A DNA stretch of 64,000 nucleotides, taken from Lelliottia sp. JS-SCA-14. Its GTDB lineage: Bacteria; Pseudomonadota; Gammaproteobacteria; Enterobacterales; Enterobacteriaceae. The position numbers and the translations under genes are program-made. Where the stretch lies: NCBI RefSeq assembly GCF_035593345.1, contig NZ_CP141606.1, forward strand, positions 2,790,001-2,854,000, read 5' to 3'. Shown piece by piece: positions 61,188-64,000 of the stretch. Every line of letters starts with the position of its first letter. The first letter of the stretch is position 1. The notes under the pieces are model-generated. The model was not told the DNA's origin. It searched no databases and saw only the letters and a program-made list of their open reading frames with translations.

Positions 61188-61536
61188 TCATTCCCAAGTA
61201 GGCAGGACAATCAACAGCGACATGTCATGTCCTAACACATCCTCTCTGCTGTACTGCTCTGGAGATAGCCAGTAATAGACTTTCCTCTCGAATATGTCTA
61301 CAAACTCGGAATCAGGTGGTATGACATGAACAGCTGCAACCCGCCAATATTCTGAGATGGCATCCTCTCTATCCCGTGATATTCCCCCATCTAATATGAA
61401 ATTTCTCAATTTCGACTACTGCTTGCGAAAGCGCATTGTATGCCTCGGGAATGATAGTTCGGCGATTACTCACAAATCTCCACAAGGATGAAATTATAGG
61501 TGCTGAATTAATCAGCGTAAGTAGGATCCCTCTACA
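61188..61536 (-). pseudogene. Frameshifted, 5'-truncated ORF remnant
   Basis: Two overlapping minus-strand frames read like one interrupted protein. The upstream frame is open from 61536 (after a TAA at 61537-61539), includes L-I-N-S-A-P-I-I-S-S-L-W-R-F-V-S-N-R-R and A-L-S-Q-A-V-V-E-I-E-K-F-H-I-R-W-G-N-I, and stops at 61369. The other frame continues S-R-D-R-E-D-A-I-S-E-Y-W-R-V-A-A-V-H-V and ends at 61188. Joined near 61375-61400 they make ~115 residues. No ATG is at the 5' end. The family is not recognised. Confidence 0.55.
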
Positions 61537-61823: not shown

Positions 61824-62057
61824 TCATCGTAGTTGCCGATAAGAGCAGATTAATGTAATCAGCGCAGGTATTGCGGCAACAAACCAACCCGAGATCAGTA
61901 GCAGATCGAGCGTGTCCTCATCCCCTGATAATGAAAAAATATCCTTAATCACATAAATCCACGACAAAGGGACATTGTAAAACCACACCGCTGATATACC
62001 GGCAAACATGATAATGGCTATGAAAAGACTCAGTAGAAATATCAAAAATGTTCTCAT
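61824..62057 (-). CDS. Probable immunity protein of the DUF2778 effector (small membrane protein)
   Basis: 77 residues. Two hydrophobic helices (~4-28 and ~53-70) flank a ~25-residue loop with an acidic patch (S-G-D-E-D-T-L-D). The ATG overlaps the effector stop in ATGA, so translation is coupled. Position, coupling and membrane location fit an immunity protein guarding the periplasm against a peptidoglycan-targeting T6SS effector; this is inference. No similarity to a named immunity family could be established by eye. Confidence 0.6.
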   Translation of the reverse strand: MRTFLIFLLSLFIAIIMFAGISAVWFYNVPLSWIYVIKDIFSLSGDEDTLDLLLISGWFVAAIPALITLICSYRQLR

Positions 62058-62533
62058 GTTACGGTTATCGTTCCATGTGCTTTAAAGCTCGTACAGGGAA
62101 CTGGCATCATCGTGGTGTTTAGCAATGCTTCCCGCAAATAGTCAAAATCTGACAAGCTGCAAAGCGTTATACACCCTTCACTCAACCCGCGCGGGCCAAT
62201 CGGATGCAATCTAAAACTAGAGCGTTTAACACCCTCGACAAAAACTGCGTCGTCTATCTGCCAGTCCTCTTTATAAAGAGCGAACCATGTAGAACGGTCT
62301 GTGCCGTAGAAATTTTTCAGGCCGAAATCAGTTATTGCACCCAACCGACCACCGCTTTGCCTACTTAAAATAAAGTAGCGACCCGGGGGGATTGGGCCAA
62401 TTTCCTTTCTGCCAGCCATTGTCACGTTATTGCGCCCAAATAGCTGACCTGAAAATGCGGGAAAGTTTCCCACTCCCGCTACGGTCAATATAGAGGTCGG
62501 CAAGCCATTCAGTGCAAACCTGGCAATTATCAC
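62054..62533 (-). CDS. T6SS effector, DUF2778 L,D-transpeptidase-like (Tlde1 family)
   Basis: 159 residues from a GTG whose GTGA overlaps the hcp stop; the longer ATG frame (62584) would overlap hcp by 55 bases and is less likely. The C-terminal half carries the YkuD-like catalytic core R-L-H110-P-I-G-P-R-G-L-S118-E-G-C121-I-T-L, the His/Ser/Cys set of DUF2778. An upstream G-P-I-P-P-G-R-Y-F-I is also typical. Salmonella Tlde1, the known relative, cleaves or exchanges D-amino acids on tetrapeptide stems in target cells. Sandwiched between hcp and a membrane protein. Confidence 0.82.
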   Translation of the reverse strand: MIIARFALNGLPTSILTVAGVGNFPAFSGQLFGRNNVTMAGRKEIGPIPPGRYFILSRQSGGRLGAITDFGLKNFYGTDRSTWFALYKEDWQIDDAVFVEGVKRSSFRLHPIGPRGLSEGCITLCSLSDFDYLREALLNTTMMPVPCTSFKAHGTITVT

Positions 62534-63021
62534 GCTGTAACCCTCATGTTCCAGCCGTCTGTAAACTTGATGTTGCCGTCGCAATATTTCCAGGTGATTT
62601 TTTCATAACGCAGCTCGACTGATTCAAGATGATTATGTTTTTCCATAGCCTGGTTTTTTACGTTGTGCATGACTGGTGTTACACCAACCACCTTCACCCC
62701 TTCGAGGAACATGTTGAAATATTCAACCTCCTGCCCTGCATCGTTAATGCGATACCACTTTATTTCAGCAGACTTGAGCGTTTGGCCTGATGCCACCGCG
62801 CGATACAGATAAGGTGAGGAGGAGTCAAACTCCTTTTCTATTGTGAGAGGGGAATGAATACGGGTGCCAGTGAGTTTGCCTGTATTCCCATCAGTTGGAA
62901 TATGAAGGCCATGGCCGAAGGATAAAACCTCAACACTACCCTCTCGATCCTTCACATCGACAGAACCCTTAATATCCGCGCCACCGTCATCTTTCAGCCA
63001 CAAATAAGCTGGTATAGCCAT
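62530..63021 (-). CDS. hcp: T6SS inner-tube protein Hcp
   Basis: 163 residues with the Hcp1-family layout: A-I-P-A-Y-L-W-L-K-D-D-G-G-A-D-I-K-G start, V-L-S-F-G-H-G-L, L-T-G-T-R-x-H-S-P-L, and the C-terminal L-R-Y-E-K-I-T-W-K-Y-C-D-G-N. Hexameric rings form the T6SS tube and can carry small effectors in the lumen. Strong SD AAGGAG, with TATACT 29-34 bases upstream of the start as a possible -10. No other T6SS structural gene occurs in the window, so this is an orphan copy bundled with its cargo. Confidence 0.95.
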   Translation of the reverse strand: MAIPAYLWLKDDGGADIKGSVDVKDREGSVEVLSFGHGLHIPTDGNTGKLTGTRIHSPLTIEKEFDSSSPYLYRAVASGQTLKSAEIKWYRINDAGQEVEYFNMFLEGVKVVGVTPVMHNVKNQAMEKHNHLESVELRYEKITWKYCDGNIKFTDGWNMRVTA

Positions 63022-63101
63022 GATTTATCTCCTTATAAAAAAAGGAGTATACTCATGCTAGTTTCGAGGCCCAGAACTTTTTGTGCGGAAAGATTTCTCA
63101 T

Positions 63102-63131
63102 AATAAAACCCGCACAGAGGCGGGTTTTATT
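63102..63131. terminator. Strong bidirectional hairpin upstream of hcp
   Basis: AATAAAACCCGC-ACAGAG-GCGGGTTTTATT, a perfect 12-bp stem. It sits 81 bases upstream of hcp and would insulate the hcp operon from transcription entering from the right. Confidence 0.8.
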
Positions 63132-63225
63132 ATTTCGGCAACATCCAAAATTAGCCTTAAAAATCAGTCATTCTATTGCATTTTGTAACCACACTTAGAA
63201 TTTTTAATGTGGTTATCGTGCTTTA

Positions 63226-63411
63226 TCACAGAAAAAGCCTCAACTGATTAATCAACGACATCTTTGCTGGCCACATGGCGGCAATTTGCTCCTCAAGGAG
63301 AACAAGTGTTTGTATCAGCGCCGTTTTATCCAGTGCGACTACCTCCTCTTTCATCAACTGCCAGTCTGGTGCGTACACGCGAAGCCAGGCGCCAATGTTA
63401 ACACGTTGCAA
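63226..63411 (-). pseudogene. Unrecognised ORF remnant, possibly phage-derived
   Basis: The minus-strand frame (TTG at 63411, no ATG) encodes ~61 residues with protein-like helical character (W-L-R-V-Y-A-P-D-W-Q-L-M-K-E-E-V-V-A-L-D). A preceding M-A-Q-L-Q-L-K-Y-T-D-L-G-N-A frame (~63460) ends in TGA just where this frame begins, so a frameshift within a longer gene is plausible. The family is not recognised. Confidence 0.35.
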
Positions 63412-63547: not shown

Positions 63548-63712
63548 TTCAGTAATACCCCGCCAACTTTTCACGAGATCCGCAGCCTTTCCGGGCGGCT
63601 GTATGAAGCAGCCTATGGCAAAGAATTTACCCAAAAACTTTTCGGTCACAAGTCCGAGAAGATGACCAAAAAGTACCTCGATAAGCGCCAGAAAGAGTAC
63701 GTGATGATTTAA
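63548..63712 (+). pseudogene. Tyrosine-recombinase (phage integrase) C-terminal remnant
   Basis: The frame reads N-T-P-P-T-F-H-E-I-R-S-L-S-G-R-L-Y, then F-T-Q-K-L-F-G-H-K-S-E-K-M-T-K-K-Y-L-D and ends Y-V-M-I-stop. This contains the H-x-x-R, the G-H and the catalytic Tyr of lambda-type integrases. Upstream the frame is closed by TGA at 63506, and no start or N-terminal domain is present, so only ~53 codons survive. Confidence 0.88.
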
Positions 63713-63844
63713 ATTTTCCTTGTGAAAAAAATGTTAAGGCCGATTTTGTTGTGATATAAAAGGAAAAGACCGGATATCGAAATTCGAGGAAATTTCGAGG
63801 ATTTTCGGGGCGGTCTCTGTAATTTACTGATGTGACTTACAAAT

Positions 63845-63950
63845 AAAAAGAGACCGAATACGATTCCTGTATTCGGTCCAGGGAAATGGCTCTTGGGAGA
63901 GAGCCGTGCGCTAAAAGTTGGCATTAATGCAGGCTCAAGTCGCCTGACAC
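63845..63950 (-). ncRNA. sdsR: SdsR (RyeB) small regulatory RNA
   Basis: The minus strand contains the conserved SdsR core: GCCTGCATTAATGCCAACTT, TTAGCGCACGGCTCTCTCCC, AAGAGCCATTTCCCTGGACC. It ends with a terminator hairpin (GACCGAATAC...GTATTCGGTC) and TTTTT. Hfq-dependent and RpoS-controlled; known targets include ompD, tolC and mutS mRNAs. The gene appears complete (about 106 nt). Confidence 0.93.
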
Positions 63951-63955
63951 TTTAA

Positions 63956-63962
63956 GAATAGA
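63956..63962 (-). promoter_or_regulatory. Sigma-S type -10 of sdsR
   Basis: On the minus strand CTATTCT followed by TAAAG fits the RpoS extended -10 (CTAYACT TAA). It sits ~6-7 bases upstream of the deduced SdsR 5' end. Confidence 0.65.
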
Positions 63963-64000
63963 TGACGACGCCAGGTTTTCCAGTCCGCAGCAAAAGTGGT

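What the first reader, a model, noticed from the sequence alone, without database searches (positions are those of the whole stretch)
61824..63021. Orphan Hcp-effector-immunity operon (Hcp / DUF2778 Tlde1-like / membrane protein)
Seen: three minus-strand genes joined by two 4-base overlaps (GTGA between hcp and the effector, ATGA between the effector and the membrane protein), a strong SD before hcp and an insulating hairpin upstream. The effector keeps the His110, Ser118 and Cys121 motif of DUF2778. Known: Tlde1 is a T6SS L,D-transpeptidase/carboxypeptidase effector, and Hcp can carry small cargo. Inference: a mobile tube-plus-cargo cassette that uses a T6SS encoded elsewhere. The 77-residue two-helix protein would be a compact immunity factor of unassigned family.
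Basis: partly seen in the sequence, partly recalled or inferred. Interest (0 to 1): 0.75.

Follow-up and report, generated by a model that had tools for sequence, protein, structure and literature searches.

The report
Hcp–toxin–immunity cassette in prophage remnant
A three-gene cassette in a decayed prophage of a Lelliottia-like bacterium encodes a tube protein of the bacterial type VI injection machine, a small enzyme predicted to damage the cell wall of rival cells, and a tiny membrane protein that most likely protects the owner; each kind of part is known, but the protective protein matched no named family.

Summary
Three minus-strand genes (hcp 63021-62530, effector GTG 62533-62054, 77-aa membrane protein 62057-61824) are joined by GTGA and ATGA overlaps, with a strong SD and a 14-bp hairpin upstream. 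Hcp passes TIGR03344 and PF05638. The effector passes PF10908 (now Tlde1_dom, 108 against 30 bits); His110/Ser118/Cys121 are invariant in 31 of 31 relatives. The 77-aa protein matches no named family, but two-helix proteins follow the effector in 23 of 30 genus loci (29 with at least one helix called) and in 51 of 67 phage-collection loci. Profile comparison with permutation controls makes the 77-aa protein their relative; a single-sequence test failed. Immunity distance tracks the effector more than Hcp. A conspecific strain that lost hcp and the effector's start keeps it. The genome has a T6SS cluster with 11 core components plus further T6SS loci. The cassette lies among integrase, Q and phage-like remnants at the SdsR/RyeA site. 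Best explanation: a mobile T6SS tube-plus-cargo-plus-immunity module. Unexpected: Tlde1 plus two-helix pairs, mostly without Hcp, occur in predicted prophages, some beside head, tail or lysis genes, and in the isolated phage JC1. Nothing was tested at the bench; fold searches could not be run.

The parts
62530..63021 (-). orphan Hcp (TssD), 163 aa
   Evidence: TIGR03344 158.6 bits, cut-off 58.9; PF05638 119.9 bits; 74.8% identical to the Hcp of a T6SS cluster elsewhere in the genome
62054..62533 (-). Tlde1-domain (DUF2778) effector, 159 aa, GTG start inside the end of hcp
   Evidence: PF10908 Tlde1_dom 108.1 bits, cut-off 30.1; phrog_14093 (unknown function) 5.5e-56; His110/Ser118/Cys121 invariant in 31 of 31; AlphaFold model mean pLDDT 78.8
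61824..62057 (-). 77-aa two-helix inner-membrane protein, probable immunity protein, no named family
   Evidence: no match in NCBIfam, none over a Pfam cut-off, none below 0.14 in PHROGs; hhalign to 21 other Tlde1-linked small proteins E 8.2e-5, 0 of 300 permutations as good; model: helices 2-28, 31-41, 46-76, pLDDT 86.9
63029..63034 (-). Shine-Dalgarno AAGGAG of hcp
   Evidence: read from sequence
63100..63133 (.). 14-bp perfect inverted repeat, terminator-like hairpin between the Q remnant and hcp
63226..63411 (-). C-terminal remnant of a phage antiterminator Q-like protein
   Evidence: phrog_304 E 1.8e-4, residues 4-38 match profile positions 180-214 of 224
63554..63712 (+). C-terminal remnant of a phage integrase
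   Evidence: phrog_10320 (unknown) 1.4e-20, phrog_216 integrase 4.3e-8, phrog_1 integrase 1.8e-5
63841..63986 (+). RyeA (SraC) sRNA gene; SdsR (RyeB) on the other strand, 63845-63945
   Evidence: Rfam RF00101 6.5e-40 and RF00111 6.4e-22 (L053 coordinates plus 59999)
61188..61409 (-). short phage-like ORF on the far side of the cassette
   Evidence: phrog_12412 E 3.9e-6

Best explanation
This is a mobile, Hcp-led T6SS effector-immunity module. One mRNA most likely makes, by coupled translation, an Hcp tube protein, a Tlde1-type peptidoglycan enzyme and its immunity protein. Most likely the enzyme rides as cargo with this Hcp when it is built into the tube of a T6SS encoded elsewhere in the genome. 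In the struck cell's periplasm it would trim or exchange the D-Ala of peptidoglycan tetrapeptide stems (L,D-carboxypeptidase / exchange), weakening the wall. The 77-aa hairpin membrane protein, with basic tails inside and an acidic loop ending in GDExxxD outside, would bind or block the enzyme in the owner's periplasm. Shown: gene order, families, active-site residues, T6SS genes in the genome, and recurrence of the gene trio. Inferred: one mRNA, loading on this Hcp, the enzyme's activity and target, topology, and protection.
For: Families. Active site; the top PDB profile hit, though not significant (E 0.44), is Tlde1a, aligned so that its H121, S128 and C131 (named in PMC9638812, passages) fall on His110, Ser118 and Cys121. 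Machine present. Hcp compatibility: 74.8% and 73.0% identity to the Hcps of the chromosomal and plasmid T6SS loci. Recurrence: in 30 genus loci Hcp is directly upstream in 21, after the small protein in 8, absent in 1; a small hydrophobic ORF follows in 29 of 30 (two helices called in 23, one in 5, four in 1; one unresolved). Pairing: over 29 loci the partial distance correlation effector-immunity given Hcp is 0.33, Hcp-immunity given effector 0.09. Topology: in 67 of 67 proteins with two segments (71 examined) the tails hold more K+R than the loop, and the loop is net negative in 66. Relic: in the conspecific G059, hcp and the first 14 codons of the effector are lost while the small protein has 1 synonymous and 0 amino-acid changes in 234 nt.
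Against: No activity, secretion or protection was measured. A single-sequence test of the 77-aa protein against a profile of the other small proteins failed (0.4 bits; 572 of 1991 shuffles at least as good); only the two-sequence profile succeeded. The second motif histidine of Tlde1a (H129) is Glu119 here. No promoter was found. Two of the 3 genus genomes without TssC still carry the effector, so the cassette does not require a resident T6SS. Over 29 loci the effector tracks Hcp (0.70) more than it tracks the small protein (0.49). G059 differs little in the whole region (for example 5 of 723 nt in the neighbouring phosphatase-like gene, 5 of 438 in the shared effector part), so 1 of 234 nt proves no selection. 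In Salmonella the tldi1 gene lies upstream of tlde1 (PMC10434147, passage), here the small gene lies downstream. Of four plasmid hits opened only one (Rahnella) has an Hcp match, and one (Mycetohabitans) has no small membrane protein after the effector.
Confidence: 0.78

Rival explanations
1. The enzyme plus two-helix pair is in origin a phage module (lysis helper, wall-modifying or exclusion function), and the two-helix protein is holin-like; the Hcp gene joined later, and the cassette here is a leftover of a decaying lambdoid prophage.
For: 66 distinct IMG/VR loci encode a Tlde1-type relative; with phage JC1 added, 51 of 67 are followed by a two-helix protein, 8 by one with a single helix called, 8 by none, and 4 have an Hcp match in the fetched stretch. 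Neighbour ORFs (72 of 122 listed were scanned) include baseplate, tail, head and portal families, each hit by 2 to 4 of the 72, list cut at 25 of 122 families; in L120 the next ORF is a holin. JC1 gp41/gp42 lie before the large terminase. The window cassette lies between Q and integrase remnants and a phage-like ORF. The effector matches a PHROG family of unknown function.
Against: None of 55 small proteins scanned matched a holin family; JC1 has its own lysis module, gp72-gp76 (PMC9144972, passages); the acidic loop is not an expected holin feature (recalled). In the genus, Hcp is beside the pair in 29 of 30 loci. Only 2 of 50,697 phage records match the effector, JC1 and a Salmonella genome contig. 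IMG/VR contigs are predicted and can include host DNA.
Confidence: 0.12
2. The cassette is a non-expressed relic of a decayed prophage with no present function.
For: Integrase and Q are only C-terminal remnants; hcp and the effector's start are lost in the conspecific G059; no promoter by consensus.
Against: In the window all three frames are open with both overlaps and the SD present; relatives with the same three-gene order occur in Citrobacter amalonaticus, an Enterobacter MAG and an IMG/VR contig.
Confidence: 0.08
3. The 77-aa protein is an unrelated small membrane protein, not the immunity protein.
For: No family match; single-sequence test negative.
Against: Recurrent place, overlap, size and topology; profile-profile homology with 0 of 300 permutations as good; small-protein distances track the effector (0.49) more than Hcp (0.40).
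Confidence: 0.07

Closest known systems
Tlde1a/Tldi1a of Salmonella Typhimurium SPI-6 (PF10908)
   Same: Tlde1 domain over the curated cut-off; His/Ser/Cys catalytic set; enzyme coded next to a small envelope protein
   Different: Coded outside a T6SS cluster and joined to hcp; Glu119 in place of H129; the small gene is downstream (tldi1 is upstream, PMC10434147 passage) and codes a two-helix protein, whereas Tldi1a is described with a Sec signal (PMC9638812 passage)
Tae4-Tai4-TssD loci of Enterobacter (PMC13185608, passages)
   Same: Effector, immunity and Hcp genes grouped together
   Different: Other effector family; Tlde1 is not mentioned in that main text (0 occurrences)
Orphan T6SS effector/immunity pairs near mobile elements (review PMC12288458, section 22 read)
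   Same: Outside the main T6SS cluster, beside mobile elements
   Different: The effector examples in that section are Hcp-like, Rhs-CT and PIX proteins, not Hcp-Tlde1 trios in prophages
Burkholderia phage JC1 gp41/gp42 (PMC9144972, passages and table)
   Same: DUF2778 protein overlapped by a small two-helix protein
   Different: No Hcp match; lies before the large terminase; listed as DUF2778 and hypothetical protein in the passages seen
TseH-like effector with an 86-aa two-helix DUF4229 putative immunity protein (PMC10469887, passage)
   Same: Peptidoglycan effector beside a small two-helix putative immunity protein
   Different: Different enzyme family; DUF4229 was not among the Pfam matches of the 77-aa protein or of 55 small proteins

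Membership tests
Tlde1 effector family (PF10908) | Domain score over the curated cut-off | tested here: met
   108.1 bits, cut-off 30.1
Tlde1 effector family (PF10908) | Catalytic His, Ser, Cys | tested here: met
   His110, Ser118, Cys121 invariant in 31 of 31
Tlde1 effector family (PF10908) | Second histidine (H129 of Tlde1a) in (S/T)HGC | tested here: not met
   SEGC here; E, K, D or N in the genus relatives. The Pfam cut-off is passed without it; changing it in Tlde1a left exchange activity (PMC9638812 passages)
Tlde1 effector family (PF10908) | LD-transpeptidase-like fold | tested here: inconclusive
   AlphaFold model pLDDT 78.8, pTM 0.79, five models 61.7 to 78.8; fold searches not run; PDB profile best hit Tlde1a, E 0.44; single-sequence PDB search found no Tlde1a
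Tlde1 effector family (PF10908) | LD-carboxypeptidase/exchange activity and periplasmic toxicity | not testable with these tools
   needs bench work
Hcp/TssD | Score over the curated cut-off | tested here: met
   158.6 against 58.9 bits
T6SS effector-immunity module | T6SS machine in the same genome | tested here: met
   (TssB and TssJ not among the 25 of 50 families shown; PF14331 saw TssM only at two other places, TIGR03348 sees it in this cluster)
T6SS effector-immunity module | Secretion by the T6SS and protection by the immunity protein | not testable with these tools
   needs bench work
Tldi1 (Salmonella) immunity proteins | Gene upstream of the effector | tested here: not met
   Here downstream; upstream position from PMC10434147 passage
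Tldi1 (Salmonella) immunity proteins | Sequence similarity to Tldi1 | not tested
   Tldi1 was not fetched
Phage holins | Match to a holin family | tested here: not met
   0 of 55 small proteins in the PHROGs (E up to 0.001) and Pfam (E up to 0.01) lists

The most novel reading that the evidence does not exclude
The Tlde1 enzyme and a fast-evolving two-helix partner form a recurrent cargo module of temperate phages, mostly without Hcp. In enterobacteria an Hcp gene has been joined to it, making a phage-carried weapon that arms whatever T6SS the lysogen has. Phages would then be vehicles that hand ready-made T6SS ammunition, with its antidote, from host to host.
Probability: 0.3. Interest if true: 0.72.

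Novelty: new variant of a known kind. Interest (0 to 1): 0.5.

Why it matters
If right, it supplies an unnamed family of two-helix immunity proteins for Tlde1 effectors (71 distinct small proteins examined here, 67 with the same two-helix layout), shows a tube-plus-cargo-plus-antidote unit that can be moved as one piece, and links T6SS arsenals to temperate phages. It makes testable whether an orphan Hcp is needed to load its neighbour, and why phages carry a T6SS-type enzyme and antidote without Hcp.

Tried and rejected
Holin or lysis cassette as the main reading: no holin family among 55 small proteins scanned, and JC1 has a separate lysis module. E. coli relatives by DNA: none. Relatives of the 77-aa protein on plasmids: none by tblastn; in 61 genus genomes only the own and conspecific copies are strong, the other four matches have E 0.03 to 0.096, one of them (L048) the gene after a Tlde1 gene. 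PDB search with the small-protein profile: nothing below E 0.17. Att repeats: only 15-17 nt direct repeats, none convincing. T6SS-cassette co-occurrence in the genus: not informative, 58 of 61 genomes have TssC. First viral scan with the single protein: 0 relatives; the alignment query gave 66. Phage records: 2 of 50,697 for the effector, 3 for Hcp at 33% identity or less. Fold searches: never accepted. Paper searches on the phage side: DUF2778 with phage listed only the JC1 paper; Tlde1 with prophage listed 5 papers, none opened; T6SS effector with prophage, Hcp and moron listed 1, not opened. The original 2020 Tlde1 paper was in no listing I saw and is known to me only through citing papers.

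Full report
What is there. Three minus-strand genes stand in a row with 4-base overlaps. The first is an Hcp (TIGR03344 158.6 bits; PF05638). The second passes PF10908, which Pfam now calls Tlde1_dom (108.1 bits against 30.1). The third is a 77-aa protein with two hydrophobic helices that matches no NCBIfam model, no Pfam model over its cut-off and no PHROG below E 0.14. An AAGGAG lies 7 nt before hcp, and a perfect 14-bp hairpin stands between hcp and the next upstream remnant (-19 kcal/mol, z -5.9).

Where it is. The genome is a Lelliottia-like enterobacterium of 5.0 Mb in two contigs; the conspecific genome G059 carries the match on a contig of the same length (473,839 bases) as a record of Lelliottia sp. 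V86_10. The cassette lies between a DUF535 gene (ends 60993) and the sRNA pair RyeA/SdsR. Between cassette and sRNAs lie the C-terminal remnant of an antiterminator Q (phrog_304) on the same strand and the C-terminal remnant of an integrase on the other strand (phrog_216); on the far side is a phage-like short ORF (phrog_12412). I read this as a decayed lambdoid prophage, with the cassette downstream of Q, where such phages often carry extra genes (recalled). In G059 the same place holds a longer phage remnant with a DnaC-like loader and a replication protein; there hcp and the first 14 codons of the effector are gone and the 77-aa gene is intact, with 1 synonymous and no amino-acid change in 234 nt. 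That fits a kept antidote, but the whole region differs little, so it proves no selection. In G052 the relative matches over 975 bases only, with no match in the rest of 17 kb, so it lies elsewhere.

Effector. Of 61 genus genomes 48 hold a Tlde1-type match. In an alignment of 31 (L065 dropped for a stop) His110, Ser118, Gly120 and Cys121 are invariant. Work on Salmonella Tlde1a names H121, S128, H129 and C131, with S128 bonded to H121 (PMC9638812, abstract and passages); the profile's best PDB hit is Tlde1a with these positions aligned, but at E 0.44 that is not significant alone, and the single sequence finds no Tlde1a. H129 is Glu119 here and E, K, D or N in the genus relatives. AlphaFold gives a strand-rich fold with a weak stretch at residues 70-81 (mean pLDDT 78.8). 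Fold searches were not accepted.

Delivery. TssC occurs at 4 places, TssK at 4, TssF at 3, the PF14331 part of TssM at 2. One chromosomal cluster shows models for TssA, C, D, E, F, G, H, I, K, L and M (TssB and J not among the 25 of 50 families shown). The orphan Hcp is 74.8% identical to that cluster's Hcp, 73.0% to the Hcp of the plasmid cluster and 77.5% to that of a second Hcp-Tlde1 cassette at C1:4138 kb, which has its own two-helix protein. The genome holds ten Hcp matches.

The small protein. In 30 genus loci (those for which a locus was returned, out of 48 genomes with a match) a small hydrophobic ORF follows the effector in 29: two helices called in 23, one in 5, four in 1 (L028); L017 was not resolved. 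Hcp is directly upstream in 21, beyond the small ORF in 8, absent in 1. The 77-aa protein has one close relative besides G059, in Citrobacter amalonaticus (Hcp 89%, effector 87%, small protein 53%); for an Enterobacter MAG the figures are 91, 78 and 26, for an IMG/VR contig 90, 77 and 25, and for a Rahnella plasmid 78, 67 and 26 (shuffles of the small protein average 13 and reach 32 in one such comparison, so figures near 26 do not prove homology). A single-sequence test against a profile of the others failed (572 of 1991 full and 470 of 2000 segment-wise shuffles at least as good). A two-sequence profile (window and Citrobacter) against 21 of the 30 others gave E 8.2e-5, probability 60.8%; 0 of 300 segment-wise column permutations reached it, 0 of 100 with only the loop permuted, 3 of 100 with only the helices permuted. 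So the signal sits mainly in the loop (Pro..Tyr..GDExxxD). In 67 of 67 proteins with two segments (71 examined) the tails are more basic than the loop, and the loop is net negative in 66: ends inside, acidic loop in the periplasm, by the positive-inside rule (recalled). The model has helices 2-28, 31-41 and 46-76. Over 29 loci (26 of the 30 genus loci, without L006, L017, L022 and L028, plus L058, L063 and L076) distances correlate 0.49 effector-immunity, 0.70 effector-Hcp, 0.40 immunity-Hcp; partial effector-immunity 0.33, Hcp-immunity 0.09. In 23 Hcp-upstream loci the three are 0.47, 0.26 and 0.22. Permutation p-values there (0.001 to 0.015) ignore kinship.

Outside the genus. tblastn finds the effector in 143 plasmid records. 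Of four opened, Rahnella, Erwinia and Pantoea have a two-helix ORF after it and Mycetohabitans has none; only Rahnella has an Hcp match in the stretch; the Erwinia copy lies next to a Tn3 transposase. The effector matches phrog_14093, a phage-protein family of unknown function. An alignment scan of IMG/VR gave 66 loci. With phage JC1 that is 67: a two-helix protein follows in 51, one with a single helix called in 8, none in 8 (L098, L106, L107 and L141 stop at the contig end); an Hcp match is in the fetched stretch in 4. Many are near copies: 61 small proteins fall to 44 when those over 85% alike are dropped. Of 122 neighbour ORFs listed 72 were scanned; they include baseplate, tail-fibre, head and portal families, 2 to 4 members each, and single loci show holin (L120), baseplate (L128) and head (L122) neighbours, while five of nine neighbours scanned singly had only unknown families or none. 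In JC1, an isolated phage, the pair lies before the large terminase and the lysis module is elsewhere (PMC9144972, passages and table). Against a wide spread in phages: of 50,697 phage records only JC1 and a Salmonella genome contig match, and IMG/VR contigs are predictions that can include host DNA. So the pair also lives as phage cargo without Hcp, how widely is open; so is how the enzyme would leave the cell there: by the host's T6SS, by lysis, or not at all.

Known and new. Known: Tlde1 effectors, orphan effector/immunity pairs near mobile elements (PMC12288458, section 22), Hcp-effector-immunity grouping (Tae4-Tai4-TssD, PMC13185608, passages). Five held full texts mention Tldi1 with immunity; of three of them I read passages (PMC10469887, PMC9638812, PMC10434147), and those passages do not describe this small protein family; the other two were not opened. 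New here, as far as these searches reach: the two-helix protein as the regular downstream partner of Tlde1 in these loci, its rapid divergence against a conserved layout, and the pair in phage contigs. I therefore call it a new variant of a known kind.

Noticed in passing
G000:C2 60-99 kb (L056, L145): The 107.6-kb second contig carries its own T6SS genes (TssC, TssK, TssF, Hcp).
   Followed up: partly
G000:C1:4137768-4138702: Second Hcp-Tlde1 cassette in the same genome, effector about 45% and Hcp 77.5% identical, with a different two-helix protein of 82-83 aa.
   Followed up: partly
G000:C1:2869042-2869377 (L044): An Hcp domain at the start of a long open frame (639-663 aa), about 16 kb from the cassette: possibly a fused (specialised) Hcp.
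   Followed up: no
G000:C1:4007605 and 4011563: A divergent Hcp and a TssM-like gene about 4 kb apart, away from the other T6SS clusters.
   Followed up: no
Burkholderia phage JC1 gp41/gp42 (L075:6001-6743): Isolated phage with a Tlde1-domain gene and a two-helix partner before the large terminase, outside its lysis module.
   Followed up: partly
L022, L023, L026, L028, L030, L031, L033, L034: Alternative gene order Tlde1, small protein, Hcp; the seven of these that were aligned (not L033) have a shorter His-Ser spacing (HPGTISEGC type) and longer C-terminal ends.
   Followed up: partly
L028:1985-2509: A 174-aa version of the small protein with four hydrophobic segments, perhaps two fused copies.
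   Followed up: no
L061 (Mycetohabitans megaplasmid): Tlde1-type gene with no two-helix partner directly after it, near genes annotated as Pvc16 family and contractile injection system tape measure.
   Followed up: no
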